Position numbers and translations under genes: made by a program. Below, piece after piece: positions 1,988-35,229 of a DNA stretch of 64,000 bases (position 1 is the stretch's first letter; each line of letters opens with the position of its first letter). Source of the DNA: Acidobacteriota bacterium (GTDB taxonomy: Bacteria; Acidobacteriota; Thermoanaerobaculia; Multivoradales; Multivoraceae); assembly GCA_028875725.1 (NCBI GenBank), contig JAPPCR010000006.1, positions 813,786-877,785 of the forward strand, given 5' to 3'. The notes under the pieces are model-generated. The model did not search any database. It saw only the letters and a program-made list of their open reading frames with translations, and was not told the origin of the DNA.

Positions 1988-2384
1988 CACCTCGGTCCTG
2001 GTGCGTTTGCTCACCGGGGAACCCAGGGAGGACTTCCTGGACTGCGTCGCCGGGCTGATCTTGCTGGTCGAGCACGAGGGAAGCGAGATCTTCGCCTCGA
2101 ACCAGGTGATCGGCGAGGCGTACGTTGCCGTTCAGCATCACTACAGGGTGTCGAAGCCGGAGGTCCGAGCCGGGCTGCTCGAGGTGCTTCGCAGTGGCCT
2201 CGTCTCGCCACTCAACGGGCGCGCGGTGTTCGCGGCGCTGGAAGCGAGTGGCGGCCCGGGCTTGTTCAATCGTCTGATCGCCGATGACTACTCGCGCGCC
2301 GGGTTGGAGGTTCTGACCCTGGACCGCAGGATGGCGGACCTGGCCGGCGTGTCGCGCCTGAGCGTCCCCCGTCCCGGCGGCTAG
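1965..2384 (+). CDS. PIN-domain ribonuclease toxin (VapC-like)
   Basis: A 139-residue PIN domain protein, predicted Mg2+-dependent endoribonuclease. Visible acidic positions are the N-terminal Asp in FGIDTSVLVRLL, the Glu in VIGEAYVA and the Asp residues in LIADDYSRAG and LTLDRRMADL, which match the PIN active-site pattern. I chose ATG 1965, which puts the first strand at the N-terminus; an in-frame ATG eight codons upstream is possible. It overlaps the AbrB-type antitoxin gene by 23 bp. Its 3' end is covered on the opposite strand by the C-terminal tail of the large repeat protein gene (overlap 2266-2384). Confidence 0.8.
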   Translation: MTRRFGIDTSVLVRLLTGEPREDFLDCVAGLILLVEHEGSEIFASNQVIGEAYVAVQHHYRVSKPEVRAGLLEVLRSGLVSPLNGRAVFAALEASGGPGLFNRLIADDYSRAGLEVLTLDRRMADLAGVSRLSVPRPGG

Positions 2385-5300
2385 GTACTGAGCGCGAAGG
2401 GCTCTGCCAGGTCGGGTTCGACGCAGGGACGGATGGGGCGGCTACTCGGGGCTTGAGCTCGATCAGGAAGCCGCCGCGGCGTTCGCCCGGCGCCAGGTCG
2501 AGGGCTACGCCGAACCCGTCGTAGCCTTGCCGTTGGACCATCAGGGAGGTCGCCTTTCGAGGTGCGAACTCAAGCCGGTACTCGCCGTTCGCGTTGCTCT
2601 GGGTGAACCCGGCCGGGATCCACTCCTCCTCGGCGCCCGGGGCGAGCTCCGCCTCCGGGTCCACGACAATGGCGACCAGGTTGGCGCCCGCGACGGGCTC
2701 CCGGGTCACGGCGTCGATGACGGTTCCGGCCAGCACCGCCGGCGGATCCAGGTCGACGAAGATGTCCTGGTCGGCCTGGAGCTCGATTTTGCGGGAGTGG
2801 GTGACGCCATTCTGTTCTGCGATCATCACCTTGTATGAACCGGCCGCGAGGCCGTCGATGTGGAACCGGCCCTGCTGATCGATCCGCGCCGTGCGCCCCG
2901 GGCCGTACCGCGTGGTGCCCTCGACGACGTAGACCTCGCCGCCGGCGGAAGGTCGCCCCTGGGACAGGACTTCGCCGGTCAGGGTGAAGCCGGGTTCGAA
3001 GCGCAGCTCCACGAACGCCTCGCCTGGACCGGTTTCCAGCGTGACCGATCGCTCGACCCTGCGTCCGTCGGCTTCTTCGGCGCTGACAGTCCATCTCCCC
3101 GGCCCGAGAGCGTCCAGTTCAAACCCGCCCTCGAGGTCGGGGGTCGTGATGCCGCCGAGGAGGCGTTCCTGGGCGGCCCTAACCGAGATGCCGGCGAATG
3201 CTTCGGGCGGGCGGCCCGTTACGGCGCCGCGCAGCGTGATTCCGCGATGTAGAACGAAGTCGACGCCGGCGACCGATACGCCAGCGACCCGCACCGGGAA
3301 GCGGCCTGACGCGGCGCGTGCGTAGCCGTCCGCGTGGGCCCGTAGTTCGTACCTCCCGTGGTCCAGGCCGCCGATTCGATAGTTGCCGCTCTGGTCGGTG
3401 ACGGCCTCCAGGGGGACCCTGGGAAGGACCTGTCGCCGGGCGTCGGCCAGATCGTCCAGCGATGCCGGCGGCTCGCTCAGGTAGGCCTCGACTCTTGCAA
3501 GGGCCAGCGGCGCGCCGGCGGCTGTGGTGACGGTTCCGGAGATCTCCCAGCCCGGTTGCAACTTGAGATCGACTTCGTTCGTTCCACCGTCGATCACGAC
3601 CTCCGCCACACCGTCCCGGTAGTCCGGATGGCGGGCGACGATCCGTGCGGGACCCGAGGGAACGCGGTAGGCCTGGTAGCCGCCGCCGGCATCGGTTCGG
3701 GCGCTGTGGTGCGTTCCTGTCACCTGACCTGCCGCGTCGCGCGGCTGAACGAGGATCTCCGCTCCGGTGACCGGCTCGCCGTACGGGTCGGTTACCACGC
3801 CGGCGAGGTGGGCCCGGGCGCTCAGGTGGAGTTCGATCTCGCGCTCTTCGCCCGGCCGAAGCGGGATGGCGCCGATGTCTTCCGCCAACTGCTCGCCACC
3901 GACGTCGACCAACCAGGGTCCCGCCCCGAGAGCCTCGAACAGGAAGCGGCCGTCGCTGTCGGTTGTCGCATCGTGTCTGGGAGCTTCGGGACTCCACGCT
4001 GTGCGGCTGAGGCCCGGTTTGCGGTCGAGTCGGAGCCAGATGTACGCGTTGGCGACGCCCTCGCCGTCCGCGTCGAGCACCCGGCCGGCGAGTCTGGCCC
4101 CCTCGCCCAACTGGACCTCGATCAGCCTCCCGGCCTGCGGGCTCACTGCGTTGACCTCAAGGCGCTCGTAGCCTTCGGCCTCGACGACGAGGTCGGCCGG
4201 CTCGGCGCGCAGTCCGGCGATGCGGAACGTGCCGTCCGTTTCCGTCAGCGCGGTCCGGATTTCCGGGTCGAGAGGCCGGAGATGGTCGATGTTGTTCTGG
4301 TGGACCTTGACCTGGGCGCCACGCACGGGGCGGCGCTGGAAGTCACGCACGACGCCCTCGATCGCCGCGCCGACATCGAGCGTGAGGATACCCACGTCCT
4401 TCGTCCCCTCGCCTGGCGGCACCTCGAATGCCGTCGCCCGGACGCTGACGTACTCCGGATGGCTCGCGGTCAGCTGGTGGCGTCCGGGTGGGGTGCCGGC
4501 GAACTCGAACACGCCGCGGGCGTCGGTCGTGCTGGTTCGCCGGGCGGCGATGTTCTGTGAGTACCCGCCGGCTCCCGTCACAGCGACCGGTAGCAGGGCG
4601 ACCTCAGCGCCCGCAATGGGAGCGGCGTGCGTATCGGTGATCGCCCCCTGGACAAGGCGGCCGCGCGTGAGCACGAGCCGAACGGGCTTCCGCGTCGAGC
4701 CCGCGGGCGCCGCCGGAATGGAGATGGTTCCAGGTGCGTAGCTGTCCGCCTCAGCGTGGAGACGGTAGGTGTGACCGGACGCGACACCGGAGACGAAGAA
4801 CCTCCCATCGGCGGCCGAAGTCGCCCTCCAGGTTCCGGGGCCGATGCTCCAGCCGCCACTTTGACCGGTCGGTTCGATCCACAGGTAGGCGCCCGCGACC
4901 GGCCGGCCGGCCGCGTCGACGACCTGACCGCCGAGGAGCGCCGCCGGCGCCAGCGCGATGTCGACGCCATCGGCGGACCCGATCCGCTCGGCTGTCACCA
5001 TGGCGCTGGTTGCCTGGTAGCCGTCGGCGGCGATGCCGACCTGCGCCCGGCCGCGGTGGAGCCAGGTGCGCAGGACGAAGGCGCCGCCCGGGCCTGATCG
5101 CGTTTGCTCGCCGGGTCGGTGCCAGATCGCCGCACCGGGGACCGGACCGCCGGTGCTCTTGTCAGTGACGCGACCGGCGATCTCGGCCGGCGGCCTGAGC
5201 CGGACCTCGACGTTCGCGGGGACGCCGGCGTCGCTGGCCTCCGGTCCCAGGGGAGCGGTCCAGGCCAGGGAGTGATCCTCGGCAATCGCCTGGTAGATGA

Positions 5301-6189
5301 GGCTCTGGTCCGACGTGAGGCCTACCGTCGCCTGGCCGCGTTCGTCGGTCAGCGCCAGCGGTACGTCCTGGCTCTCGCCGACGGTGACCACGGCGCGGGG
5401 CGCCGGCCTGCCGCGCGGATCCAGTACTCGGACGGTGACGCCATGCCCCGGTGTCAACTCGAAGACGCCGCCGCGATCTCCGACGGGCCCAGCGCGCAGC
5501 CGGAACCCCTGCGCCGAAACGAAGGCGTTCACCTCCGCGGTCGGCATCGAGAACGTGGCCACTCCGGTGGCATCGGTGCGGGCGGCGGCGCGCCAGAAGC
5601 GCGGGTAGATCCGTTGCCGGGGTTGATTCCATCGCGGCCGCGCCGCGTTGGCTTCGGCGCGTTCCGAACGCCACAGGACGGGATCGGCAACTACCAGGGC
5701 GCCCTCGACGGGTCGGCCCTCGAGATCCTTCGCGCCGACCGTCAGAGTGTGCCAGTTCGGGACTTCGATGGGCGGCAGGACGGTCGGCGCCGCCAGTGGC
5801 GCCAGGCTGTGGGACACAGGCGCTACGGCGACGCCGCGTGCTTCCGGCGCCGCGCTTTCTGATGGAGCGGAGATGTCCAGCCGGTACGGACCCACGGCCG
5901 GCGCGGTCAGCGTGAAGGCACCGTCCGGGCCGGATCGGGTCGAATCCACGACTTCGCTCAGGGGATCAGACTCGCCCAGATCTTCGAGCCGGCGCTCGTA
6001 GCGGCTCGGAGAGGGCCGCAGTTCGAGATCCAGACCCGCTGCCGGTGCGCCCTGCTCGTCGACCAGCGTACCCGTGACGGTTAGTGCGGGACCGGGCGGC
6101 GGCTGCGCGTGCAGACGATTGGCGGTCAGGCCGGTCGAGAGACCAAGCGCCAAGCCCGTGCAAGCGGTGCCGAGCAGTACTCTCCGCAT
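2266..6189 (-). CDS. Large exported carboxypeptidase-regulatory-like repeat protein
   Basis: A 1307-residue predicted exported protein built from about 13 Ig-fold CarboxypepD_reg-like modules. Each module begins with a pattern like GxVxDxxGxPVxGAxV (for example VTGTLVDEQGAPAAGLDLEL near residue 40 and LAGVVTDPYGEPVTGAEI near 800), followed by a (D)GxFxxxGLxxGxYxL loop. The N-terminus has a signal peptide (hydrophobic stretch ending LHA-Q). No catalytic domain is seen, so the role is probably structural or adhesive at the cell surface. ATG 6189 has GGGAGAAG upstream. The last ~60 residues, after LIELKPRV, are low-complexity, Arg/Ser/Pro-rich and run antisense through the PIN toxin gene. They are unlike the paralogue's ending, so a frameshift there is possible. 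Confidence 0.82.
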   Translation of the reverse strand: MRRVLLGTACTGLALGLSTGLTANRLHAQPPPGPALTVTGTLVDEQGAPAAGLDLELRPSPSRYERRLEDLGESDPLSEVVDSTRSGPDGAFTLTAPAVGPYRLDISAPSESAAPEARGVAVAPVSHSLAPLAAPTVLPPIEVPNWHTLTVGAKDLEGRPVEGALVVADPVLWRSERAEANAARPRWNQPRQRIYPRFWRAAARTDATGVATFSMPTAEVNAFVSAQGFRLRAGPVGDRGGVFELTPGHGVTVRVLDPRGRPAPRAVVTVGESQDVPLALTDERGQATVGLTSDQSLIYQAIAEDHSLAWTAPLGPEASDAGVPANVEVRLRPPAEIAGRVTDKSTGGPVPGAAIWHRPGEQTRSGPGGAFVLRTWLHRGRAQVGIAADGYQATSAMVTAERIGSADGVDIALAPAALLGGQVVDAAGRPVAGAYLWIEPTGQSGGWSIGPGTWRATSAADGRFFVSGVASGHTYRLHAEADSYAPGTISIPAAPAGSTRKPVRLVLTRGRLVQGAITDTHAAPIAGAEVALLPVAVTGAGGYSQNIAARRTSTTDARGVFEFAGTPPGRHQLTASHPEYVSVRATAFEVPPGEGTKDVGILTLDVGAAIEGVVRDFQRRPVRGAQVKVHQNNIDHLRPLDPEIRTALTETDGTFRIAGLRAEPADLVVEAEGYERLEVNAVSPQAGRLIEVQLGEGARLAGRVLDADGEGVANAYIWLRLDRKPGLSRTAWSPEAPRHDATTDSDGRFLFEALGAGPWLVDVGGEQLAEDIGAIPLRPGEEREIELHLSARAHLAGVVTDPYGEPVTGAEILVQPRDAAGQVTGTHHSARTDAGGGYQAYRVPSGPARIVARHPDYRDGVAEVVIDGGTNEVDLKLQPGWEISGTVTTAAGAPLALARVEAYLSEPPASLDDLADARRQVLPRVPLEAVTDQSGNYRIGGLDHGRYELRAHADGYARAASGRFPVRVAGVSVAGVDFVLHRGITLRGAVTGRPPEAFAGISVRAAQERLLGGITTPDLEGGFELDALGPGRWTVSAEEADGRRVERSVTLETGPGEAFVELRFEPGFTLTGEVLSQGRPSAGGEVYVVEGTTRYGPGRTARIDQQGRFHIDGLAAGSYKVMIAEQNGVTHSRKIELQADQDIFVDLDPPAVLAGTVIDAVTREPVAGANLVAIVVDPEAELAPGAEEEWIPAGFTQSNANGEYRLEFAPRKATSLMVQRQGYDGFGVALDLAPGERRGGFLIELKPRVAAPSVPASNPTWQSPSRSVPSRRDGGRSGATRRPGPPSCGPGSEPPTRRASSHRRSDD

Positions 6190-6353: not shown

Positions 6354-7664
6354 TCACTCCTGTCTTTTTCGCTCTTTCCGCATCTCGACCCGGATCGGCT
6401 TGCGACGATCGGCTGCCGCGTAGTGCTCCGGTCCCAGCCAGACCCGCTTCGTGACGTAGCCCGCGGCGGCAATCCGGATCGCCTGCGGCACGTAGTCGGC
6501 GCGGGTTTTCAGTGTGAACTCTCCACCAGGACGGGCCCAGGCCAGTCTGTCTTGTCCGCGGTCAGTTCCTTCGAGCCTGTCATCGATCCAGATCGTTGCC
6601 AGGTCGACCGGCTCGTCGGTTTCGGCGTCCACCACCTGGCCTCGAAGCTCGAAAGCGGGCCAGAGGCGGACTTCCACGATCTGCGGTTCGCCGGACAGTG
6701 GTGGCTCGCGCTTCACGCGCGCGGTGCGGGCGAAGGCGCCGTCCTCGGCTTCGATCTGGTAAGAGATTCCCTTTCTCCCGGCGAGACCGACGGTTGCTTC
6801 GCCACGGTCGTCGGTGAGCGCCAGGGGAATGGCCTGGTACTCGCCGACTCGGATCACGGCTCGGGCGACAGGCGCTCCGTCGAGGTCCAGAGCCCGGAAC
6901 GTGACGCCTTCCCCGCGCGTGAGCCTGAACGCCCCCCGGTCCCGGGACAGGTCGTCGAGGCTGAGGTTGAACCCGGGCGCCGAGACGGCGACGCTGGACT
7001 TGGCGGTAGGAAGGGAGAATCTCGCGATTCCACCTTCGTTGGTGCGTGCGCTCGCTCGACCGAAGGTTGGTGACGTCTTGCCCCTATGCAGCCAGGACGC
7101 GGGCTCGGACCACTCCGAGGCCTGGACAAGGACCAGCGCTCCTTCGACCGGCTGGCCTTCCTCGTCCACGACGCCGATGACCAGGTGATGCATCTTGGGA
7201 AGCTGGACGGGCGTGATGGCGTTCGGCCTGGCGCGCAGAACCCGTCTGACGTAGACCGGAGTGACAACGGTCGGCGGTTCGGTCCGTGGAGCGGTGGGCA
7301 GAATTTCGATCTGGTGAGGGCCCGCCCGGGATGCCACGAGTTGGAAACGCCCCTCGGAATCCGAACGCGTACGGTCGACGATCGGCACGGCGTTGGAGAC
7401 GCCGAGTTCCCGCAGCCGGCGAGCGTGGCTGCCCGGGACCGGGATCAGTTGCACTTCAAGACCGGCTGCCGGTTCGAGGTCCGGGCCGATGAGGCGCCCG
7501 GCTACGATGGGTGCGTTGGACGGCTGTCGTGCAAGCAGGGCGGCCTCAGGCCGATCCAGAAGCCCCGGCGGCGACATCCAGACCAGCGCCGTGGTCAACG
7601 TGGCCGCGAGGAGGAACCCGCCGCGACGTGGTTGGCGAATGCGGTGCCTGCTTGCTGCTCTCAT
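6354..7664 (-). CDS. Short carboxypeptidase-regulatory-like protein (N-terminal part of the family)
   Basis: A 436-residue exported protein matching only the first ~440 residues of the neighbouring 1307- and 1239-residue proteins. It has an Arg-rich n-region and a hydrophobic segment (GGFLLAATLTTALVWM), then modules starting VAGRLIGPDLEPAAGLEVQL, VIGVVDEEGQPVEGALVLV, FRALDLDGAPVARAVIRVG and LRGQVVDAETDEPVDLATIW. It stops cleanly after module four with a basic tail (RVEMRKERKRQE). I prefer the ATG at 7664 over 7694 because it shortens an otherwise very long n-region; both are in frame. Function unknown, probably envelope-associated. It may be a remnant of duplication and may pair in domain content with the 538-residue paralogue downstream, which carries the later modules. 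Confidence 0.75.
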   Translation of the reverse strand: MRAASRHRIRQPRRGGFLLAATLTTALVWMSPPGLLDRPEAALLARQPSNAPIVAGRLIGPDLEPAAGLEVQLIPVPGSHARRLRELGVSNAVPIVDRTRSDSEGRFQLVASRAGPHQIEILPTAPRTEPPTVVTPVYVRRVLRARPNAITPVQLPKMHHLVIGVVDEEGQPVEGALVLVQASEWSEPASWLHRGKTSPTFGRASARTNEGGIARFSLPTAKSSVAVSAPGFNLSLDDLSRDRGAFRLTRGEGVTFRALDLDGAPVARAVIRVGEYQAIPLALTDDRGEATVGLAGRKGISYQIEAEDGAFARTARVKREPPLSGEPQIVEVRLWPAFELRGQVVDAETDEPVDLATIWIDDRLEGTDRGQDRLAWARPGGEFTLKTRADYVPQAIRIAAAGYVTKRVWLGPEHYAAADRRKPIRVEMRKERKRQE

Positions 7665-7857
7665 GCGATGCGACCTCGGTGGAGGGCGAGGCATGGCGAA
7701 TCGGCGGCCCGCTGGACAGCCTAGCAGTGCCTGGCGGCAGTGGCGCTGCGTTCGACTCGTGTTGGGGTGCCGCTCATCGCTTGACGAACCGCCCCGGATC
7801 TGTTCGTCTTCATCGACGGTTCACGCGGGTGCGGCAGCGCGCCCCGGAGGGAGATGA

Positions 7858-8073
7858 ATGGCAGGGCATCGAACGAGTCTGCTGGTTGCTCTGGTCGTGG
7901 CGCTGATCCTGCCGCAGGCGGCTCACGCCTACCTTGATCCAGCATCTGGCAGCATGATCCTGCAGGCGGTGATCGGTGGCGTGGCGGCCGCTGCGCTCGC
8001 CTTCAAGTACTACTGGCGGCGTATCCAGGCCTTCTTCGGCTACGGCAGCAACGACGAGCCAGAGTCCGAGTAG
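7858..8073 (+). CDS. Small membrane protein with YLDPxSGS motif
   Basis: A 71-residue protein with a signal-like hydrophobic N-terminus (LLVALVVALILPQAAHA), then the motif YLDPASGS at residues 25-32. A second hydrophobic stretch (MILQAVIGGVAAAALAF) leads into a basic YYWRRIQAFFGYG segment and an acidic tail. I recognise the YLDPGSGS-plus-YWRR layout from uncharacterised small proteins, often found near polysaccharide or methyltransferase genes; that is recollection, not a search. ATG 7858 is supported by GGAGGGAG at 7846-7853. Its stop codon shares one base with the GTG start of the methyltransferase gene, so the two are translationally coupled and probably work together. No function is known to me. 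Confidence 0.82.
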   Translation: MAGHRTSLLVALVVALILPQAAHAYLDPASGSMILQAVIGGVAAAALAFKYYWRRIQAFFGYGSNDEPESE

Positions 8074-9485
8074 TGCGAGCCGGGGCCGCGCGCGAGTCCC
8101 AGGCCGAGCCTTCGTCCTTCCGCGATCCGGCGGGGCAGGTGATCGAGGGCCGAGACGGCCGCATCTTCCGCAGCGTCGCCCCGGTAGCGGTCGAGGAGTA
8201 CCGCTATGTGCGGGCGTGCGGTCTCGTCGATGCACTGGTCGTAGAGGGCGGGCTGGTGGCGGCGGAGGAAGTGGATCCGGTCGAGGCCGGCGTCCTGCCA
8301 CCGCCCGGGGGGTTGGTCCTGGAGCATCCCCGGCTGCCCTTCATCTCCTATCCGTACGAGTGGCCCTTCTCGCTGCTGAAGGAGGCGGCACTCCACCACC
8401 TGGAAACACAGATCCGGCTTCTCGACAGGGGCATCTCGCTCTCCGACGCGAGCGCCTACAACGTGCAGTTCAAGGGCGCCAAGCCGGTGTTCATCGACTG
8501 GCTGTCGCTGCGGCGCTACCGCGAGGGCGAGTACTGGGAGGGCCATTCGCAGTTCTGCGAACAGTTCCTGAATCCCCTGTTGCTGGCCTCGGAGCTCGGT
8601 GTGCCTCACAACGCCTGGTATCGCGGAATGCAGGAGGGGGTCCCGGGCCGCGAACTGGCGGCTTTGCTGCCGCGTCGGAAGCGCTTGTCACCAAGAATGC
8701 AGGCCCATGTCCTGCTGCCGCTTCGCTTCGAACGGCGAGCCGACTCGCGCAGTGATGCGGCGAAACGGACGGAGAGACGCCCGCTGCCTCGCAACGCATA
8801 CCGGGGTCTCCTGACCCAGCTTCGGCGCTGGATCAAGAGTCTCGAACCCAAGGGCACGGACACGACCTGGAGCGATTACTCCCTGCTGACGAGCTACGAC
8901 ACGGGCGAAGCCTCGCGCAAGGCTGAATCGGTTCGCTCTTTCATTGCCAAGGCGCCGCCGGAGCAGCTTTGGGATCTCGGCTGCAACACGGGCGAGTTCG
9001 CCGCGATCGCCCTGGAGGAGGGCGTTCGCAGCGTGATCGGCTTCGATTCCGACTTCGGCGCGTTGGAGAGCGCCTGTGCCCGGGCGCGTTCGGATCGCCT
9101 GCGATTCCTGCCCCTCTACCAGGACCTCGCCAACCCGTCGCCTGACCAGGGCTGGTCCCAGACAGAGAGGCGCTCGCTGGCGCGCCGTTCCCGGAGCGCT
9201 GACGCCCTGGTGGCGTTGGCCGTGCTACACCACCTGGCCATCGGCCGCAACGTGCCGTTGCCTCGAATTGCCGCGTGGCTCGTTTCCCTCGCTCCGCGCG
9301 GACTGGTCGAGTTCGTTCCCCAGGGCGACCCGAGGGTAGACGATTTGCTCACGTTGCGCGGCGATCGCTTCGCCGACTACACGCCGGAGGCATGGGAAGC
9401 GGCGCTCGAGCCGTACGCCGCGATTCGTCACGTGGAGACGGTCTCGGCCAGCGGCCGGCGACTGTACACCTACGAGCGGAGGTGA
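8073..9485 (+). CDS. SAM-dependent methyltransferase with kinase-like N-terminal region
   Basis: A 470-residue protein. The C-terminal part (from about residue 290) is a class I methyltransferase: motif I is LWDLGCNTGEFA with Asp301, followed by VIGFDSD and ALVALAVLHHLAIG. The N-terminal part contains LSDASAYNVQF (Asp125, Asn130) and then PVFIDWLSL (Asp142). This reproduces the D-x4-N and following metal-binding Asp of aminoglycoside-phosphotransferase/protein-kinase active sites, so a kinase-like domain is inferred. Database entries of this layout are usually just called class I methyltransferases. The GTG start overlaps the stop of the small YLDP protein by one base. Substrate is unknown; a cell-surface or lipid/polysaccharide substrate is suggested only by the membrane-anchored partner. 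Confidence 0.8.
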   Translation: MRAGAARESQAEPSSFRDPAGQVIEGRDGRIFRSVAPVAVEEYRYVRACGLVDALVVEGGLVAAEEVDPVEAGVLPPPGGLVLEHPRLPFISYPYEWPFSLLKEAALHHLETQIRLLDRGISLSDASAYNVQFKGAKPVFIDWLSLRRYREGEYWEGHSQFCEQFLNPLLLASELGVPHNAWYRGMQEGVPGRELAALLPRRKRLSPRMQAHVLLPLRFERRADSRSDAAKRTERRPLPRNAYRGLLTQLRRWIKSLEPKGTDTTWSDYSLLTSYDTGEASRKAESVRSFIAKAPPEQLWDLGCNTGEFAAIALEEGVRSVIGFDSDFGALESACARARSDRLRFLPLYQDLANPSPDQGWSQTERRSLARRSRSADALVALAVLHHLAIGRNVPLPRIAAWLVSLAPRGLVEFVPQGDPRVDDLLTLRGDRFADYTPEAWEAALEPYAAIRHVETVSASGRRLYTYERR

Positions 9486-9493
9486 AGACTTGG

Positions 9494-12400
9494 CTACGGT
9501 TCGACTCGCTGCTCAGGGTGCAGTCGAATCACCAGCCCCTCCTGGCGCTGCCCCGGGGCGATGTTCAGGGGGATCAGCGCGCCTTGGTAGCCGTCGCTGG
9601 TGACCCATAGCCGCTCGGCTCCGGGGCCGAGGTGGATCTCGAATCTCCCGGCATCTGCGCTGAAGTCGTGGCCGGCGATCCGGGCTGACCGATAGACGGC
9701 CTGGTCGTCGCCGGCTCTCGCGACGGCCGCCATACCTGCGGCATCGCCAGCCGTCAGATAGACGTCCCGGAGCGGCAAGTCGGTCGTCGCGTCGAGGACG
9801 ATTCCGGACAGGATGGCCTCGGGCTGAAGATCGATCCGGAGGCCGTCGAGGTCTGTCTGCAGCTCGATCGACCGGTACTCCGTGCCGCCGGAGGGGGAAG
9901 AAACTGCCAGGCGATAGGAGCCGGCTTCCAGCCCCTCCAGCTCGAAGCGGCCCTCCTGATCGACCTCCGCGTGCGCTGCTCTCTCGCGCCCAAGGTGTTG
10001 GGCGCGCAGGTGCACGCCGACCAGAGGTTCGCCGGCGGCCAGCACCTGCCCGGTCAGCCGGAGACCGCGTTCGAACGGAAGCTCGACGAACTCCTCCGCG
10101 CCGGCCGCTTCGATCGTCACGGCGCGTTCGACGGAACGAGCCGTGAAGGAATCGCCGCGTCTGGCGAAGACCTGCCAGGTGCCGGGCGCCAGGTTCTCCA
10201 TGGTGAAGTTGCCTTCGGTGTCCGGCGTGGCGCTTTGCCACTGCGCAAGCCGCGTCGCGGTGATCGTCACCTGCGCCAGATCGGCGGGCGGCAGGCCGGT
10301 GACGGCGCCCCTGAGGGAGGCGCCGGATTCGAGCACGATCTCGACGCCGGCTGCGCCTCCGCCATCGACGTCGATCGGTTCTGCGGGGCCGCTTTCCGCG
10401 TGCCCGGCTGCACGGGCGACGAGGAAGTAGCGTCCGGCCTCCAGACCAGTGAGGTGAAAGGAGCCGTCGCTGCCGGACACCGTCGTGGTCGGCGGATGCA
10501 CGTACTTTCGCAGGTAGATTGCCGTGTTCGCGGCCTCCTCGGGATGGGCCTCGACGGTCGCCGAGGCCGGAGCGCCGTTGGCGAACCGGACGAAGCCGTT
10601 GATCTCGCCGCCGGCCTGGAGTTGGACTGCCATCTCGGTGTTTCCGGGGCCGACGACGATCTCCCGTGTGTCGTCCGGGTGTTCTGGATGCTGGACAGTC
10701 AGTGTGGCCGGGCCTGCGGTGACGTCGAGTCGGGCGCGTCCGCTGCCGTCCGTCGTGCCGTACTCGCTCGATTGGCCTGCGTCCTTCGGCTCCAGTCGAA
10801 TCCGCGCTTCGGTGACGGGTTGCCCGGAGGAAGCCGTCACGATGACCGTCAGACGGTCCTGGGCGTGAAGCCGCAGTTCGACCGTCCGCTCGGATCCGGA
10901 AACGAACTCGAGACGATCGGAGCGGGCGGCCTCGCTGCCGGCGCTCGCTTCGACGAACCAGAGTCCTGGAATCACGTGCCCGAAGCTGAAGCGGCCGTCG
11001 CCATCGGTCCGTGTCCTCGTATCTCTCAAGTACCAGTCGCGCACCCGCATTCGGGTCGAGTCGTCAGGCTCCAGGTTGACTCGGGCGCCGACAGCAGCGG
11101 TCCCCGCAGCCGTCAGTACGCGGCCCGAGAGAGAGGCGCCTCGCGCGAGTTGGATCAGGATCGGCTCCCCGGTGGCCGGTCGTGCCCCTTGAAGCGTGGA
11201 CAAGGCGTAGCCCTCCGCTTCGACCGTGAGATCGACCTGCTCGTGCGGAAGTCCGGCAAGCCGGAAGTTGCCGTCCGCGTCCGTTGTGGCCGTCCGTTCC
11301 TGGTCGCGGGCCCAACTGTAGCTGCGGAACCGTATGCTCGCTCCCTCGACTGGTTCCCGCTCGGGGCCGACGACAACACCGAGGATCTCGGCGCCTGGAA
11401 CCAGCGTGAACTCCCCGAGGTCGATCTCTCCCCGCCCTTCGGGAACTTCGACCGGGAGAGCGCCGGGGCTGACGTGCTCGCTGTGGGACACGTTCACGTT
11501 GTACTCGCCAGTGTTCACGGCGGCGATCCGGAACGCCCCCTGTTCGTTGGTTGCGACCGCTTCGGTGGCGTCCTCCCTAAGGAGGCTCGCGAACCTTGAC
11601 TGCTTCTCTTCCGGCCACGTCAGCTTGACTTCCGCACCGGTCACCGGGTTGCCGTCGGTGTCGACGACACGGCCGCGGGCCTGACGACCATTGGCCAGCC
11701 GGATCCGGACCGGACTGGCGGCCGCGCCGGGCTCGTAGGGTGGCAGCTCGATGGCGGAACTGGGGAATCCCGCGGCCCGGATCGTGAGCCGGTACGGGTT
11801 GCCGTAAACGATGCCGGACATTCGGAATGAACCGTTGTCCGCCGAGGTCGCGTCCGGCGGCCAGATGGCGATCATGCCGGTGATCGAATCCGTGGTTCGA
11901 GGCCGGGCCGAGATGTCTGCACCGGCAACCGGCTGGCCGGCGGGGTCCGTGACAAAGCCATAGAGCGGAGCCGCCGGTCTCAATGCGACCGCCGTCTCGT
12001 TGGTTACGCCGTCCTCAGGGACTAGTGCACTCACACCCGTTGCGACGTAGCCTTCGGCCTGGACCCACAGGCGCCTCGATTCTCTTCGGGGCCTGGATTC
12101 CAGCAGGAACTCGCCAGTGGGAGCGCTCAACGCGTTCTCGCCGGGGGCGCCCACGACCCAGATCGCTGCGTTCTCGACTGGAGAGCCGGAAACGCGATCG
12201 ATGACGCGACCCGGAATCCGGAGCGGCGGTTCCAGCCGAGAATCGACGATGCGTTCAAAGGCAGCAGGGGCGGAGGCCGCGGCATCGGGCTGGGAAACCC
12301 GGGCGAAGGCATTGTCCCAGCCCAGCAACTCGAAGGCGATCCCGGTGCCGGCGACCTTGCCGGCGGTGACGTCGCCTTGTTCGTCGGTTAGTGCCAGGGG

Positions 12401-13213
12401 CGCCCTGGCGTTGCCTGTTGTCCGCAGGAGGACTCCGGGCGCCGGTGCGCCGTCCGGTCCACGGACCCGGAACCTGATGCCCGGGTCGGGTGTTAGGACG
12501 AACGTCGCACGCCCGGACTCCGTGGCGCCCGTCTCGACACCAAAGCCCTTCGCCGAAACGACGACGTTGGCATCCGCGGTCGGCATGAGGAAGCGGGCGA
12601 CACCCTGGGCATCCGTTCTTGCGGAGGCGCGTTGGAAGCGGGTGTGGAGGCGTTTCCGCTCCTCGCCGGAGGCCGACCGTTCCTGACGGGCGGACCTGGA
12701 CCGGGTGGGAATCGCGACCACCAACGCTCCTTTGATCGGTCGGCCGTCGGCGTCTAGGACCCGGGCGGCCACGAGACGTCGATTGGGCAGCTCATTGGGT
12801 TCAAGAACCCGCGGTGCCTCCAGGGGTACGAGGTCTCCGTACACGAGGGGCACGACGGCATCCGGCGAGGCGACTGGCGGCGCGGTCCGGATCTCCAGGC
12901 GGTAGGGGCCGGGGACCGGCGCTCTGAGCGAGAAGCTGCCGTCCAGGCCCGATTGGCCGCGGTCCACGGCCGGTGGCAGGGCATCGTAGCCGAGCAGGTC
13001 GAGGTCGATCTCGTAGTCGCTCGGGTAGGGGCGGAGCACGACCTCGACGCCGGCCGCGGCGACTCCGCGTTCGTCGACGAGCGTGCCCGTGACCCCGAGC
13101 GGCACGTCGATGTTGGGCTGGGCCCAGAGTCCGGAGGCTGCGAGGCCGGCCAGTCCGAGGAGCAGGAGCAGCCGGCTCACTCTGGTCGGCGACCCCTGGT
13201 TCAGCTCAGGCAT
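9494..13213 (-). CDS. Large exported carboxypeptidase-regulatory-like repeat protein
   Basis: A 1239-residue paralogue of the 1307-residue protein, with the same order of about 13 Ig-like modules. Examples are VTGTLVDERGVAAAGVEVVL, LYGFVTDPAGQPVAGADI, LSGRVLTAAGTAAVGARV and LTGQVLAAGEPLVGVHLR. A signal peptide is visible (LLLLLGLAGLAASGLWA-Q). It ends LHPEQRVEP shortly after the last module, which is what I take as the normal family C-terminus. ATG 13213 is preferred because it lies one base after the stop of the upstream 538-residue paralogue; an in-frame ATG 24 bases upstream would overlap that gene. No enzymatic motif is seen. Its 3' end lies eight bases from the methyltransferase stop (convergent). 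Confidence 0.83.
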   Translation of the reverse strand: MPELNQGSPTRVSRLLLLLGLAGLAASGLWAQPNIDVPLGVTGTLVDERGVAAAGVEVVLRPYPSDYEIDLDLLGYDALPPAVDRGQSGLDGSFSLRAPVPGPYRLEIRTAPPVASPDAVVPLVYGDLVPLEAPRVLEPNELPNRRLVAARVLDADGRPIKGALVVAIPTRSRSARQERSASGEERKRLHTRFQRASARTDAQGVARFLMPTADANVVVSAKGFGVETGATESGRATFVLTPDPGIRFRVRGPDGAPAPGVLLRTTGNARAPLALTDEQGDVTAGKVAGTGIAFELLGWDNAFARVSQPDAAASAPAAFERIVDSRLEPPLRIPGRVIDRVSGSPVENAAIWVVGAPGENALSAPTGEFLLESRPRRESRRLWVQAEGYVATGVSALVPEDGVTNETAVALRPAAPLYGFVTDPAGQPVAGADISARPRTTDSITGMIAIWPPDATSADNGSFRMSGIVYGNPYRLTIRAAGFPSSAIELPPYEPGAAASPVRIRLANGRQARGRVVDTDGNPVTGAEVKLTWPEEKQSRFASLLREDATEAVATNEQGAFRIAAVNTGEYNVNVSHSEHVSPGALPVEVPEGRGEIDLGEFTLVPGAEILGVVVGPEREPVEGASIRFRSYSWARDQERTATTDADGNFRLAGLPHEQVDLTVEAEGYALSTLQGARPATGEPILIQLARGASLSGRVLTAAGTAAVGARVNLEPDDSTRMRVRDWYLRDTRTRTDGDGRFSFGHVIPGLWFVEASAGSEAARSDRLEFVSGSERTVELRLHAQDRLTVIVTASSGQPVTEARIRLEPKDAGQSSEYGTTDGSGRARLDVTAGPATLTVQHPEHPDDTREIVVGPGNTEMAVQLQAGGEINGFVRFANGAPASATVEAHPEEAANTAIYLRKYVHPPTTTVSGSDGSFHLTGLEAGRYFLVARAAGHAESGPAEPIDVDGGGAAGVEIVLESGASLRGAVTGLPPADLAQVTITATRLAQWQSATPDTEGNFTMENLAPGTWQVFARRGDSFTARSVERAVTIEAAGAEEFVELPFERGLRLTGQVLAAGEPLVGVHLRAQHLGRERAAHAEVDQEGRFELEGLEAGSYRLAVSSPSGGTEYRSIELQTDLDGLRIDLQPEAILSGIVLDATTDLPLRDVYLTAGDAAGMAAVARAGDDQAVYRSARIAGHDFSADAGRFEIHLGPGAERLWVTSDGYQGALIPLNIAPGQRQEGLVIRLHPEQRVEP

Positions 13214-13214
13214 T

Positions 13215-14831
13215 TCAGTGGCGTGCCCTGGCCGCATCCGCGGCGATCAGATGCGCAAGATAGATCGGTTCGCCGGTGGCGGCGTTGACGACCACGCCGG
13301 CGATCGTCGCGGCAGCCGCTTCCAGCTCAATGCGGACGCCCTCCAGGTCGCTCTCGAGGTCGATCGCCTGGAGTTCGATCCGGAGTTCGTTGGCCCCGGG
13401 CGACAGTTCCACTTGCCGCGATTCATCCCCGAGTCGCTCGTGTTCCACCTCGACCGTCGCGGGGCCGGGGGAGATGTCGAGCTGCGCCTCGCCGCTGCCG
13501 TTGGTTTGGCCGTAGCCGCTCAACCTGTTCTCCCCTCCGGACCGGATCAGGACGGTCGCACCGGCCACGGGTTCGCCGCGAGCAGTCGTGACGGTCACGG
13601 TCAGGCGGTCGGCAGTGCCCAGGACCAGTTCGATCTCCCGCTCGGCACCCGCTACCAGCTCGAAGGCCTCGACCTTGGCCGCCTCCGCCCCCTTCCTCGC
13701 TTCGGCCGACCAGGCGCCGGACGGAACTTCATCGAAACGGAAGCGGCCGTCGGCATCGGTGACTCGCCGGGGAAAGCTGTCTCTCGGCCCCCACAGGACC
13801 GAGCTGCCGCCGGAACGGCGGTCGTGTTCTCTTCTGAGCCTCACCGGGACGCCGGCGGCGCTGTTCCCGCCTGCGTCGACGAGGCTGCCCGTAACGATCC
13901 CTCCGGGCTGGAGTTCGATCAGGACCGGGTTCTCACCGTCGACGCGTACGCCCGGCCGAACGAGAAGCGGGTAGCCGGCACCCCGTACGCCGAGATCAAC
14001 CAGATTGGTAGAGAGGCCCTCGAGCCTGAAGCGACCGTCCGCATCGGCGGTGGCCGTCCGCGCAGTGCTGCCGAACTGGTTCCGGGCCTGGGCCCTTATC
14101 CAGGCGCCTGCGACCGGTTCACGGTCGGCGCCGAGGACGACTCCGTGGATCGTCCCACCGGAAACGAGGGTCAGATCGCCGAGATCGAGGGTCGCATCGC
14201 CGGCTGGAACGTCGATCTCCGCGGGCGGGCGGTCAGCGTACCCGGGATGGCGTAGGCGCAGTGCGTAGTCGCCGTGGGCCACGGCGGAGAACACGAACGC
14301 GCCCTGTTCGTTTGTCCTGGTCGTTGCGGCTGGAGTTTCGAAAGGGGACCTGTAGTCGGACTGGTCCAGGGGCCAGAGCAGGGACACATTGGCTTCGGCC
14401 ACGGGATCTCCGCCGGTGTCGACCGCCACGCCGTGGACCTGGCGGCCTGGACCGAGTACCAGGTGGACGGGGTCGAGCGTCGTGCCGGGTTCGAGAGGCG
14501 GCAAATCAAGGAGGGCACTCGCGTAGCCGGCCGCCTGAGCGATCAGACGGTAGGCGTGGCCGTGGACGACCCCTTCGACGCGAAAGGAACCGTCGGGCGC
14601 CGAGGTGGCGGATGCCGAACGGAGCGAGTTGAAGGGCGTGACCAGCGCGTTCCGGGGCCGGGCCCGGATTCTGGCGCCTTCCAGCGCTGCTCCGGACGCG
14701 TCAGTCACCAGGCCGCGGATGTGGGCCTCGGTGGCAGATGAGGCACTGCCTGGCTGGGCGGGGAGCGAGCCGGCCGCGAGCGCAGCGATGCCGGTGAAGC
14801 CGAAACAGCGCAGTAGTCGGGGCGTCTTCAT
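13215..14831 (-). CDS. Mosaic carboxypeptidase-regulatory-like protein (internal-deletion paralogue)
   Basis: A 538-residue exported protein with a signal peptide (GFTGIAALAAGSLPAQ). It lacks the four N-terminal modules of the large paralogues and starts at their fifth module (IRGLVTDASGAALEGARI). It follows them through five modules to LRIELQA, then jumps directly to the last module (LESDLEGVRIELEAAAA, IAGVVVNAATGEPIYLAHL) and stops early at AADAARARH. Relative to the 1239-residue protein about 330 internal residues are missing. ATG 14831 is preferred; an in-frame TTG lies two codons upstream. It is the first gene of a unit with the 1239-residue gene, one base apart. It could be functional in short form or a decaying duplicate. 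Confidence 0.72.
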   Translation of the reverse strand: MKTPRLLRCFGFTGIAALAAGSLPAQPGSASSATEAHIRGLVTDASGAALEGARIRARPRNALVTPFNSLRSASATSAPDGSFRVEGVVHGHAYRLIAQAAGYASALLDLPPLEPGTTLDPVHLVLGPGRQVHGVAVDTGGDPVAEANVSLLWPLDQSDYRSPFETPAATTRTNEQGAFVFSAVAHGDYALRLRHPGYADRPPAEIDVPAGDATLDLGDLTLVSGGTIHGVVLGADREPVAGAWIRAQARNQFGSTARTATADADGRFRLEGLSTNLVDLGVRGAGYPLLVRPGVRVDGENPVLIELQPGGIVTGSLVDAGGNSAAGVPVRLRREHDRRSGGSSVLWGPRDSFPRRVTDADGRFRFDEVPSGAWSAEARKGAEAAKVEAFELVAGAEREIELVLGTADRLTVTVTTARGEPVAGATVLIRSGGENRLSGYGQTNGSGEAQLDISPGPATVEVEHERLGDESRQVELSPGANELRIELQAIDLESDLEGVRIELEAAAATIAGVVVNAATGEPIYLAHLIAADAARARH

Positions 14832-14869
14832 CGTCAACGTCTGATGGAGGAGGAGCGTTCCAGGAGTGA

Positions 14870-16291
14870 TCAGGCAGCGACCGCCGCCTCGAACGCCGCC
14901 GCGACGGCGAGGGTCCGGCGGTCCGTTCCCCGTGGCGTGACGATCTGCAGGCCCACCGGCAGGCCCGATGGGCCGACTCCGCAGGGGACGGAGATGGCCG
15001 GGCAGCCGGTGACGGTGATGGAGTAGCAGGAGGCCATCCAGTCCGTGTAGCTTGTCATCGACTGGCCCTCGATCTCCGTCGGGTAGGGGCGGTCGACGTC
15101 GAAGGGCAGGACCTGCACGGCCGGCAGGAGCAGCGCGTCGTAGGACTCGAAGAACTCGACGACGCGGCAGTGGAGGCGGGTGCGCTCAGCCTGGGCTGTC
15201 GCGACGTCCGGGCCCGTGAGCGCCAGGCCACGTTCGATCTCTTCGATCACGGTGTCCTTCATCTGCGAACGGCGCTCGGGGAACAGCGGTCCCAGCTTGT
15301 CGGCGAACAGGTTCGCGCGCAGGGTGCGGAAGATGGCGTCGGCTCCGGAGAGGTCGGGCGCAGCTCCTTCGACCGTCGCGCCGAGGTCGTGGAACGCCGT
15401 CAGCGCGGTCTCGCAGACCTGAACGACCTCCCGTTCGACCGGGTAGAGGTCGAGGTTGGGCGTCCACGCGAGACGGAGGCCGGGCAGGTCGAGTGGTTCG
15501 ACCGGGTGGAAGGGCTCCGAGGGTCGGGCCAGCGAGATGGGATCCCGCGGGTCCGGCCCGGCGATGACGGAGAACAGGAGCGCGGCGTCGGCGACGTTGC
15601 GGCCCATCGGCCCGAGAACAGCGAGATCGTCCCAGCCCTGCTCGGGAGGCACGCGCGGCACGCGACCCGGCGTCGGCCGGAAGCCGACGACGCCGCAGAA
15701 ACTGGCCGGGTTGCGGAGCGAGCCGCCGAGGTCGCTGCCGTCGGCGATGGGCAGCATGCCGCTCGCGAGGGCGGCAGCCGCGCCGCCGCTCGAACCGCCG
15801 CAGGTGCGGGTGGGGTCCCAGGGGTTGCGGGTCTTGCCGTAGACGGGGTTGAAGGTCTGCGAGCCGGCGCCGAACTCGGGCGTGTTCGTCTTGCCGATGA
15901 CGACGGCGCCGGCATGGCGGATCCGTTCGACGATCAGGGCGTCGAAGTCGGGGACGTTGTCCGCGAAGATCGGCGATCCGAAGGTCGTGCGGATGCCAGT
16001 CGTCGGGACCAGGTCCTTGACCGCGGTCGGCAGGCCGAGGAGGGGCTTCGCCGCCGCGGCTTCCGGGTCAAGGCGGCGCAACTCGTCAACGGCGCGCGCC
16101 TGTTCGAGGGCGTGGTCGCGGTCGAGGGTGCAGATCGCGTTGAGTTCCGGATTCCGGCGGTCGATCCAGCCGAGGTGGGCGTCCAGCACCTCGACCGCCG
16201 AGACCTCGCCGCGGGCCAGTAGCCCGGCGAGATCGACGGCGGTGCGGGTGCAGAGATCGGGGGCGCCGGCGCACCCGGTGGCGGCGGTCAC
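14870..16291 (-). CDS. Amidase (amidase signature family)
   Basis: A 473-residue amidase-signature hydrolase. The Ser-cisSer-Lys triad is visible: Lys in TAVKDLVPT, cis-Ser in CGGSSGGAAAALASG and nucleophilic Ser in SDLGGSLRNPASFCG. The flanking KTNTPEFGAGSQTFNPVYG and RNPWDP signatures are also present. The start is a GTG at 16291 that overlaps the stop of the esterase gene by four bases (GTGA). The open frame continues upstream but that extension is only an antisense-type shadow of the esterase gene. It may hydrolyse an amide released or taken up together with the esterase substrate; the true substrate is not deducible. No signal peptide is seen, so it is likely cytoplasmic. Confidence 0.9.
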   Translation of the reverse strand: MTAATGCAGAPDLCTRTAVDLAGLLARGEVSAVEVLDAHLGWIDRRNPELNAICTLDRDHALEQARAVDELRRLDPEAAAAKPLLGLPTAVKDLVPTTGIRTTFGSPIFADNVPDFDALIVERIRHAGAVVIGKTNTPEFGAGSQTFNPVYGKTRNPWDPTRTCGGSSGGAAAALASGMLPIADGSDLGGSLRNPASFCGVVGFRPTPGRVPRVPPEQGWDDLAVLGPMGRNVADAALLFSVIAGPDPRDPISLARPSEPFHPVEPLDLPGLRLAWTPNLDLYPVEREVVQVCETALTAFHDLGATVEGAAPDLSGADAIFRTLRANLFADKLGPLFPERRSQMKDTVIEEIERGLALTGPDVATAQAERTRLHCRVVEFFESYDALLLPAVQVLPFDVDRPYPTEIEGQSMTSYTDWMASCYSITVTGCPAISVPCGVGPSGLPVGLQIVTPRGTDRRTLAVAAAFEAAVAA

Positions 16292-32253: not shown

Positions 32254-35229
32254 TCAGGGGGAGGTCGCGAGCGGCAGTTCCACCGCGGCGCCGCGGAGCA
32301 TGATGGCGAACACGCGGTGCCGCTCGCCGAAGGTCTCGGCCTCGGGTACGCCGGCGACTGTGCCGCGAAAACCGGTTCGGAGCAGGCGGGGGTCGTCGTG
32401 GCGGTCCACGACGTCTGGCCGGTCTCTGTTGATGCCCAGGTTGGCGAGAAACTCGCCGTCGCGGTAGATGACGATCTGGCGTGGGCGCTCGTGGCGCTCC
32501 AGGTCCGCGGCCCAGCCCTCCATCACGGTGCGTTGTCCTTCCTTCGCCACGACGTCGATGGCGCCCTCGAAGCCGTTCCCGGTCGACTGAACGGGAAGTT
32601 GGCGACCATCGGTGATGGGCAGGATTTCCGCTCCGCCTCGTTCCTGCTCCAGCGGCCGGTAGGAGAACCGGAGGCGCGTTGCGACACCCCGGTGTGAAAG
32701 GGCGTAGGCGACCAGGCCCTCGCGGCGGACGGTGTCGCGTATCTCGTCACGCGAGCGAGCGCGCCGGTCAGGCACGGCCTCGCCCATCTCGGACAGGAGG
32801 AAGCCGCTGTGCAGGTGTTCCGTGCCGAAGCGTTCGACCACGTCCGGTCTCTCGAGACTCGTGGCGGCGCTACCGAACTGCCGGCCTCCCAGGAACGCGA
32901 CGATCTCGCCGATGCTGCCGGGCTCTTCGATGTCGATTGCCCACCCCTGGATGCCGTCTCTCAGCTCGTACCCGCCATCCAGAAAGCCGATCAGGCCATC
33001 CGGTTGCTGCGGTTCGAGGGGGATCCGCTCGGAGTCGACATCCAGGGCGCTTCGGGATCGGCGCATGATGCCGTCGATCCGGCCGCCGTCGCCAACCGAC
33101 AGGTCGTACACGGAGAGGGGCGGCCGACCGACATGCTCGAGTTCCAGCGGCTGTCCGGGCTCTGATACGAGGAATACGTCAACCTGGTTCAGCCCGGGGC
33201 GGAACAGGCTCTCGGGCACGGTTGCCGCGATCCGACTCCTTCCGTCGGCGGTTCGGTGGGGCCTCAGCGTGGCCGCCAGCGTGCCGTTGAGAGCCACGGC
33301 CACGGTGCGATCGGACACGGGCGGGCGATTCTCGAAGACTCCTTCCACCAGGGCGGGCAGGACAGCCTGGTCGGTTGCGACATGATCCCAGACGAAGGCC
33401 GCTTCGAGCCGGATGCTGGTTTCGCCGGGGCGATGAGCCAGATCCGCAACCCGGCGGCCGTGAAGTTCGGGTCTTTCGCCGATGGCCGCCGGGTCGTTCG
33501 AGTCGCCGAGCAGTTCGGCCTGCAAGGCGACCTGACGGCGGCGCCAGGATTCGCGGTCAGGCGGAACGCCGATCGCGCCGGTGTACTTGCCGACCACGAG
33601 CGGGCCGTCCCGGTCGCGCTCGTCCGGCGCGGCGCTCCCGGCGTCCGCGCCGGCCAGTCCAAGGATCAACGGCGTGAGGTCGGCGAGCGACAGAAGCCCG
33701 TGGTCGATAGCCGCCTCTTGCTGGAAGGGCGCCTTGACGAGGAGCGGCACCGCCGCCAGATCGAGCGGCTGCCCGCCGGACGGATCATCGGGCTCCAGCA
33801 GGCGACGGGACAGGCCCGGGCGGAACGCGACGCCGTGATCCGCGGTGACGACGACCAGGCTCTCGTCGAACAGGCCGACGGACTCGAGCCGGTCGATCAA
33901 CTCGCCGATCAGGCGGTCGACGAACCCGACCTGCAACAGGTAGCGTTTTTGATGGTGCCGAACCGGCCAGGTCTCGGTCGTCCAGAGTTCGCGTTCGAGG
34001 CCGTGCATGCTTCCCCGGGGCGCGTAGTAGCGGCGGCCTGAGGGCAGGTACTCCCATGGCACGTGCGGCAGCATGGAGTGGAGGAAGTAGAAGCCGGGCC
34101 GGTCACGCGTTGGACCGATGGCGTCGATGAAACGCCGGAACTCGGCTGCCCGGTCGGTGGTTCGCAGATGGAACAGCGCCCGCGGCACTGGTTCGTCAGT
34201 TGGCGGCGGCGCGGCCGCCCGGGGACCGTCCTGGCCGAAGCCGCTCCAGGTCTGGGTCACGGGCGGCAGCCCGCTCGTCCATGCTGGCGGCAGGGTCAGG
34301 TTGAGCCAGACGACGGCGAGGTCGGAAACGAGCAGGCCGAAGCGCTCGCGAAACGCCGGTCGCGGCACCGCCAGCCGGTTGAAGTCGGTGGGGCAGAGCG
34401 AGCTGATCGGCTCCAGTGCGTACAACTCGTGGCTGGGGGCCAGCAGCGTGAACAGGTTGACGGGGTACTCGGAGGCGGTTGGCAACCGTCCCTGTTCCGC
34501 CTGCAGCCCGGAGAGCATCGCGGGCACCGCGAGTTCGGAGACGTCGGAGACCGCCGTCGCGTTCGCGTACCACGTTGCTGTGGCGGCTAGTCGGGCCAGG
34601 TTGGGGAGGCGCTCGCCGTCGATGTTGCCCGTCGCGTCCAGGATGGAGGTCAGCGACCACTCGTCGAGGACCACGAACACGATCGGCGCCCGGGCGCCGG
34701 TGTCCGTCTGGTCGACATCGACCGAGCGCACGGGGCGCGCCGCGCTCCGGCGGATGTCGCCGTCCAGAAGCAGGAGTGCAGGGACGAGGACGGTCGCCAC
34801 GGACAGGAGCAGGGCGAAGGCGCGCGCGCCGCGAAAGCTCACGTAGGCCCAGCCGGCGGCTATGCCTGCGATCACGGCGAAGGCGATGGCAGGCACCACC
34901 GGTAGGCCGCGGAGCGCCTGCAGTGCAATGACGCCGATCAGCAGACCGGCAGCCGCGGCGAGTGCTTTGGGTGTCCAGGCGGGACGGAAGATGCGAACGG
35001 TTGCTGCCGGCAACCAGAGCGCCAGAGCCGGAACGACTGCCAGCAGGATCGCCAGCGCCGCGACATCTCCTATGGAAAGTCCCCGGATGGCGAAGAACTC
35101 GGGCGTGCGACGGAGCAGGTCGTAGATCGGTTGAGCGAAGGCGAGGCTCGAGAGCCCCGCGGTCGTGGCAAGACCTGTTGCGAGAGGCCGCTGCGGGTCA
35201 ACCCGGTCTGGCCGCTGGCGCTCGGACAT
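32254..35229 (-). CDS. Membrane-anchored sulfatase/phosphoesterase-fold protein with duplicated C-terminal module
   Basis: A 991-residue protein. Four to five hydrophobic segments occupy about residues 15-155 (for example [15 protein letters not shown] and [18 protein letters not shown]). A domain of the alkaline phosphatase/sulfatase superfamily follows: [37 protein letters not shown] and [12 protein letters not shown] supply the expected metal-site Asp/His residues. The C-terminal third holds two copies of a ~55-residue GWAxDxE module, around Trp763 and Trp906, each ending in RPDVV and a GF dipeptide. It may transfer or hydrolyse a phosphoryl or sulfate group on envelope glycans. Divergent from ispG; the opposite-strand frame of ispG runs into its first ~100 bases but ispG very likely starts later. 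Confidence 0.8.

What the first reader, a model, noticed from the sequence alone, without database searches (positions are those of the whole stretch)
8073..9485. Kinase-type catalytic motifs fused in front of a SAM methyltransferase
In the N-terminal half, Asp125-x4-Asn130 in LSDASAYNVQF followed 12 residues later by Asp142 in PVFIDW reproduces the catalytic loop and metal Asp of APH/protein-kinase folds (compare HGDxxxxN...IDW). A class I methyltransferase domain (motif I Asp301) follows. A single chain that phosphorylates and methylates, or a pseudokinase-regulated methyltransferase, would be new to me; annotation pipelines would report only the methyltransferase.
Basis: partly seen in the sequence, partly recalled or inferred. 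Interest (0 to 1): 0.62.

Follow-up and report, generated by a model that had tools for sequence, protein, structure and literature searches.

The report
NoeA-family kinase–methyltransferase with membrane partner
This bacterial protein really does join a kinase-like half to a methyltransferase half, but it is a relative of the known root-nodule protein NoeA, a kinase–methyltransferase family already described in print; what it modifies is still unknown.

Summary
Window 8073-9485 (+) encodes 470 aa with a kinase-like N-terminal half and a class I SAM methyltransferase half. Asp125, Asn130 and Asp142 are invariant in all 24 distant homologues I examined. A model of residues 1-258 (pLDDT 81) gave only kinase-type folds among the 50 rows listed by each of two fold searches. 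Calling it new is wrong: the protein is 44% identical over 97% of its length to Sinorhizobium meliloti NoeA, and a 2022 survey named this family (NoeA/Lani_1194) as kinase-methyltransferase fusions. The intact triad argues against a pseudokinase. Most likely mechanism (inferred): it phosphorylates, and possibly then methylates, a membrane-associated glycan or lipid, like WbdD but with reversed domain order. I add three things. A 71-aa membrane protein (YLDPxSGS) overlaps its start by one base; the motif lies upstream in 19 of 28 distant loci and in 0 of 1046 control stretches. A sulfatase-fold membrane protein family co-occurs with it (21 of 22 genomes) and is encoded 23 kb away in this window. 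The cassette is kept across the genus inside a variable array of secreted repeat proteins.

The parts
8073..9485 (+). noeA-like gene, 470 aa, kinase-like domain then class I SAM methyltransferase
8073..8846 (+). kinase-like domain, residues 1-258; conserved SFRDP near the N-terminus, R33, YPYEW (93-97), D125-x4-N130 at 8445-8462, D142 at 8496-8498
   Evidence: invariance; model pLDDT 80.9; fold searches
8847..9482 (+). class I SAM methyltransferase domain, residues 259-470; motif I WDLGCNTG (D301)
   Evidence: Pfam Methyltransf_23/12/11 weak matches, Methyltransf_11 at cut-off; VIA-align Z up to 14.5 to methyltransferases
7858..8073 (+). 71-aa small protein with signal-peptide-like N-terminus, AYLDPASGSMILQ motif and a hydrophobic segment; its TAG stop (8071-8073) shares one base with the GTG start of the noeA-like gene
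   Evidence: same motif upstream in 19 of 28 distant loci, 0 of 1046 control stretches
32254..35229 (-). 991-aa membrane protein with a sulfatase/alkaline-phosphatase-fold domain, homologous to proteins directly downstream of noeA homologues in three other genomes; a probable but unproven third partner
   Evidence: Pfam Sulfatase 3.2e-18; 31-38% identity over 543-1013 aa; 21 of 22 genomes co-occur

Best explanation
The gene encodes a NoeA-family bifunctional enzyme. Shown: a kinase-fold N-terminal half with an invariant Asp-Asn-Asp catalytic/metal triad, a SAM methyltransferase half with invariant SAM-binding residues, one copy in the genome, and a one-base overlap with a small membrane-protein gene. 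Inferred: it sits at the inner face of the membrane, next to the YLDP small protein, transfers phosphate from ATP to a hydroxyl of a membrane-associated glycan or lipid, and its methyltransferase half then methylates the phosphate or the same substrate, as WbdD does when it caps O antigen with methyl phosphate. A sulfatase-fold membrane protein of the NoeB kind probably acts on the same product outside the membrane.
For: 44% identity over 97% to NoeA, and the window protein groups with NoeA, L070 and L028 on a branch with 100/99 support. Triad 24 of 24; R33, the likely stand-in for the kinase lysine, 22 of 22. The kinase-half model matches only kinases among the listed rows, including PknG and the amicoumacin kinase AmiN. 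The methyltransferase half matches WbdD (Z 12.8, rmsd 3.4, 180 aligned) and the methylphosphate capping enzyme (Z 12.8) among many others. WbdD makes methyl phosphate, and so does the unrelated O7 ORF6 methyltransferase-kinase. YLDP neighbour 19 of 28. Sulfatase-fold family co-occurrence 21 of 22 genomes.
Against: No substrate is known here or, in what I saw, for NoeA. Many unrelated methyltransferases match as well as WbdD (NodS 14.5, ChlM 14.1), so the fold does not tell the methyl acceptor. No glycan or Nod-factor biosynthesis genes were seen next to it, and no NoeB-like gene is adjacent in the window or the 17 genus loci. YLDP is absent upstream in 9 of 28 distant loci.
Confidence: 0.5

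Rival explanations
1. The two halves are active but modify different positions or different molecules: phosphate on one hydroxyl, methyl on another oxygen or nitrogen (for example of a lipo-oligosaccharide), rather than a methyl phosphate.
For: The methyltransferase half's best VIA-align row is NodS, a Nod-factor N-methyltransferase (Z 14.5), and NoeA belongs to a Nod-factor operon.
Against: Rows under 1 Z apart are ties, and the list is full of unrelated methyltransferases.
Confidence: 0.3
2. Pseudokinase: the N-terminal half binds nucleotide or substrate and regulates the methyltransferase without phosphotransfer.
For: No GxGxxG/S loop in residues 1-120 and no lysine at the likely ATP-lysine site but R33; the 2022 paper could not find the ion-pair Glu in the family.
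Against: D125, N130 and D142 are invariant in 24 of 24 distant homologues; pseudokinases usually lose some of these (established knowledge).
Confidence: 0.12
3. The kinase fold is used for another ATP chemistry, such as AMP transfer (SelO-like) or glutamylation (SidJ-like).
For: Atypical nucleotide loop with conserved metal ligands; such cases are known in other kinase-fold families (recalled, no call).
Against: Nothing specific to it was found; the family was described as having a conserved kinase active site.
Confidence: 0.08

Closest known systems
NoeA of Sinorhizobium meliloti (nodL-noeA-noeB operon; host-range nodulation protein) and the Lani_1194 family of PMC9758233
   Same: End-to-end similarity (44% over residues 15-469), same domain order, same triad, a YLDP small ORF just upstream in both
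   Different: No nod genes here; no NoeB directly downstream; the host is an acidobacterial lineage, not a rhizobium (names of the closest loci)
WbdD of E. coli O9a
   Same: Kinase plus methyltransferase in one chain; methyltransferase halves share a fold (Z 12.8)
   Different: Domain order reversed: WbdD residues 7-211 match the window's C-terminal half and WbdD's metal ligands N356/D369 lie behind; similarity in a profile search is weak and confined to the methyltransferase (E 0.011). The 2022 paper too treats WbdD as a separate architecture
Klebsiella O7 ORF6 N-terminal methyltransferase-kinase
   Same: Kinase half not recognised by annotation and found only by modelling; makes a methyl-phosphate end group (PMC11231755, passages seen)
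   Different: Methyltransferase first, with coiled coil and glycosyltransferases in the same chain; not compared by sequence here

Membership tests
NoeA/Lani_1194 kinase-methyltransferase family | full-length sequence similarity to NoeA | tested here: met
   44% identity, 97% coverage, E about 1e-94; same branch as NoeA, support 100/99
NoeA/Lani_1194 kinase-methyltransferase family | kinase-like domain first, class I methyltransferase second | tested here: met
NoeA/Lani_1194 kinase-methyltransferase family | Asp, Asn, Asp corresponding to PKA D166, N171, D184, and Arg in place of K72 | tested here: met
   D125/N130/D142 24 of 24; R33 22 of 22. The mapping to PKA numbers follows PMC9758233; I had no residue-level superposition
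NoeA/Lani_1194 kinase-methyltransferase family | NoeB-like (alkaline-phosphatase-fold) gene as adjacent neighbour (38% of loci in PMC9758233) | tested here: not met
   None adjacent in the window or 17 genus loci; not a required feature. A remote homologue of noeA-adjacent sulfatase-fold proteins lies 23 kb away
NoeA/Lani_1194 kinase-methyltransferase family | modification of a Nod factor or other secreted molecule | not testable with these tools
   biochemistry needed
WbdD | methyltransferase N-terminal, kinase C-terminal | tested here: not met
   order is reversed here (ranges)
WbdD | phosphorylation then methylation giving a methyl phosphate | not testable with these tools
   needs NMR or mass spectrometry of the product
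protein-kinase-like fold | kinase fold of the N-terminal half | tested here: met
   VIA-align Z 10.5, rmsd 4.1, 199 aligned to PKR (2a1a_B) and only kinase-fold chains in the 50 rows shown; same for Foldseek's 50 rows, apart from a ribosome entry (6zxg_z) whose chain I did not identify
pseudokinase | loss of catalytic or metal-binding residues | tested here: not met
   triad invariant

The most novel reading that the evidence does not exclude
A three-part membrane module: the cytoplasmic kinase-methyltransferase, the tiny YLDP membrane protein that docks it at the membrane, and a NoeB-like sulfatase-fold membrane enzyme that moves or trims the (methyl)phosphorylated group on an outside glycan. 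It would be a general envelope-decorating system, with the rhizobial Nod-factor operon as one borrowed copy.
Probability: 0.2. Interest if true: 0.55.

Novelty: new member of a known kind. Interest (0 to 1): 0.3.

Why it matters
NoeA has been a host-range gene without a known reaction since 1995 (citation seen in the reference lists of PMC9758233 and PMC4053727; the 1995 paper itself not read). The family is widespread: 51 of 247 acidobacterial genomes searched have a full-type match. A conserved small partner and a co-occurring membrane enzyme give concrete handles for finding what it modifies. The fusion itself is not new.

Tried and rejected
Novel fusion: rejected after finding NoeA and PMC9758233. 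Phage origin: no match in 50,697 phage records; the viral-contig scan with the single protein found nothing, and with alignment A1 it found three loci, used here as sequences only. Full-length fold search: both result lists were filled by methyltransferases, so the N-terminal half was modelled and searched alone. NoeB next door: not found at 1e-3 in the window or genus loci; the weak hit elsewhere in the genome turned out to be a homologue of the sulfatase-fold family. The small YLDP protein matches no Pfam or NCBIfam family above its cut-off. Whether it is the neighbour called Lani_1193 in PMC9758233 I could not tell; supplements could not be read. Paper searches on the small protein (YLDPGTGS, 0 papers; 0 papers holding 3 of 4 terms) found nothing, in this library only.

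Rows dropped before counts: L049 (near-copy of L048); six genomes with only short methyltransferase matches (G029, G098, G012, G018, G100, G218) from the 57, leaving 51. Of those 51 genomes, 20 non-genus ones were aligned for the triad; 21 non-genus ones were not. Of the 28 distant loci in the YLDP count, one (L041) has only 356 upstream bases. The co-occurrence figures treat genomes as independent, which they are not; by genus it is 11 of 11. The control for the YLDP motif is crude (non-overlapping 560-base stretches of the same loci).

Full report
What is there. The ORF 8073-9485 (+) encodes 470 aa from a GTG start. Only methyltransferase families match it in Pfam and NCBIfam, weakly. The genome holds one copy and 20 of 21 genomes of the genus have it. 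Close copies (85-99% identity) come from Acidobacteriota MAGs labelled Thermoanaerobaculia, Holophagales and the like, one of them labelled Vicinamibacteraceae.

Is the motif real? In 21 distant homologues (20 acidobacterial genomes and S. meliloti NoeA) D125, N130 and D142 are 21 of 21, and they are invariant also in an alignment with three further distant loci. Other invariant residues of the N-terminal half are R17, D18, R33, P94-Y95-E96-W97, Q132, W155, Q160 and G189. In the methyltransferase half G303, N305, G307, D325, D327, E365-R366, H386-H387 and N393 are 22 of 22, and D301 21 of 22.

Fold. The full model (17 sequences, pLDDT 76.7, pTM 0.79) matches methyltransferases, WbdD among them. 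The model of residues 1-258 alone (pLDDT 80.9, pTM 0.80) matches kinases: Foldseek's 50 listed rows include PknG, CLK1, CK2, ASK1 and AmiN, with one ribosome chain whose identity I did not check; VIA-align's best are PKR (Z 10.5, rmsd 4.1, 199 aligned) and others at Z 9-10, all kinase-fold proteins including RNase L. TM-scores are modest (0.31-0.43 by query), so this is a divergent kinase fold, and the catalytic loop sits where it should in the order of strands and helices.

What family. A tblastn search of plasmids gave 65 records, nearly all Sinorhizobium and Rhizobium, at 44% identity over 97% of the protein, annotated NoeA where named. On a tree of 27 sequences the window protein and NoeA fall on one branch with L028, L070 and genus relatives (100/99). 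PMC9758233 (section 8 read; other passages) described the family: conserved kinase active site with Arg for Lys, 94% of about two thousand homologues with a methyltransferase domain, a neighbour in 65% and a NoeB-like alkaline-phosphatase-fold neighbour in 38% of 816 loci. The fusion is therefore known, and this is a new member.

The small partner. Directly upstream, 7858-8073 encodes a 71-aa protein with a signal-peptide-like start, the motif AYLDPASGSMILQ and a hydrophobic segment; its TAG stop shares one base with the noeA-like GTG start. The motif [YF]xDPxxG[SAT] lies within 500 bases upstream in 19 of 28 distant loci, S. meliloti included, and in 0 of 1046 control stretches from the same loci. 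All 17 genus loci carry it. It has no Pfam or NCBIfam family above cut-off.

The possible third partner. In several genomes a membrane protein with a sulfatase-like domain follows noeA: two sequence clusters of three loci each, with weaker relatives in two more loci. The window's own 991-aa protein at 32254-35229 (-) has a Sulfatase domain and is 31-38% identical over 543-1013 aa to the noeA-adjacent proteins of three genomes. In 247 acidobacterial genomes this family (E<=1e-20) is in 22, of which 21 have a noeA homologue, against 51 of 247 overall; without the own genus 11 of 12 against 41 of 237; by genus 11 of 11 against 30 of 141. The exception is G104. Genomes are not independent. NoeB itself is only remotely similar to these proteins.

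Surroundings. The cassette stands in reverse orientation among large secreted paralogues of carboxypeptidase-regulatory-like repeats. Across 17 genus loci the cassette is constant while these neighbours vary in number and identity.

Mechanism. Shown: domain make-up, conserved catalytic residues, operon-like overlap with a membrane protein, co-occurrence with a sulfatase-fold membrane protein. Inferred: ATP-dependent phosphorylation followed by SAM-dependent methylation of a membrane-bound glycan or lipid. The best precedent is WbdD, which phosphorylates and then methylates the phosphate (PMC3482155, passages), but its domain order is opposite and its kinase half was not matched by sequence here. 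A second precedent is O7 ORF6 (PMC11231755, passages). A truncated noeA was linked to a nodulation-deficient S. meliloti strain (PMC4053727, passages), which fits a surface or signal-molecule role.

Noticed in passing
window 2266-6189, 6354-7694, 9494-13237, 13215-14837 (-): Array of four paralogous secreted proteins with up to ten carboxypeptidase-regulatory-like repeats (33-42% identical to each other); the array varies in number and identity among 17 genus loci around the constant noeA cassette.
   Followed up: partly
window 32254-35229 (-): 991-aa membrane sulfatase-fold protein whose relatives sit next to noeA in other genomes; a second one is at G000:C23:82727-84727.
   Followed up: partly
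window 14870-16954 (-): 694-aa ORF with an amidase domain in residues 255-682 and about 250 unexplained residues in front, possibly a too-early start.
   Followed up: no
window 30286-32151 (-): DUF3604 protein (E 3e-218) on the same strand just after the sulfatase-fold gene.
   Followed up: no
G207 C1:1987988-1999390; G089, G152, G214: Several tandem copies of the sulfatase-fold gene in some genus members.
   Followed up: no
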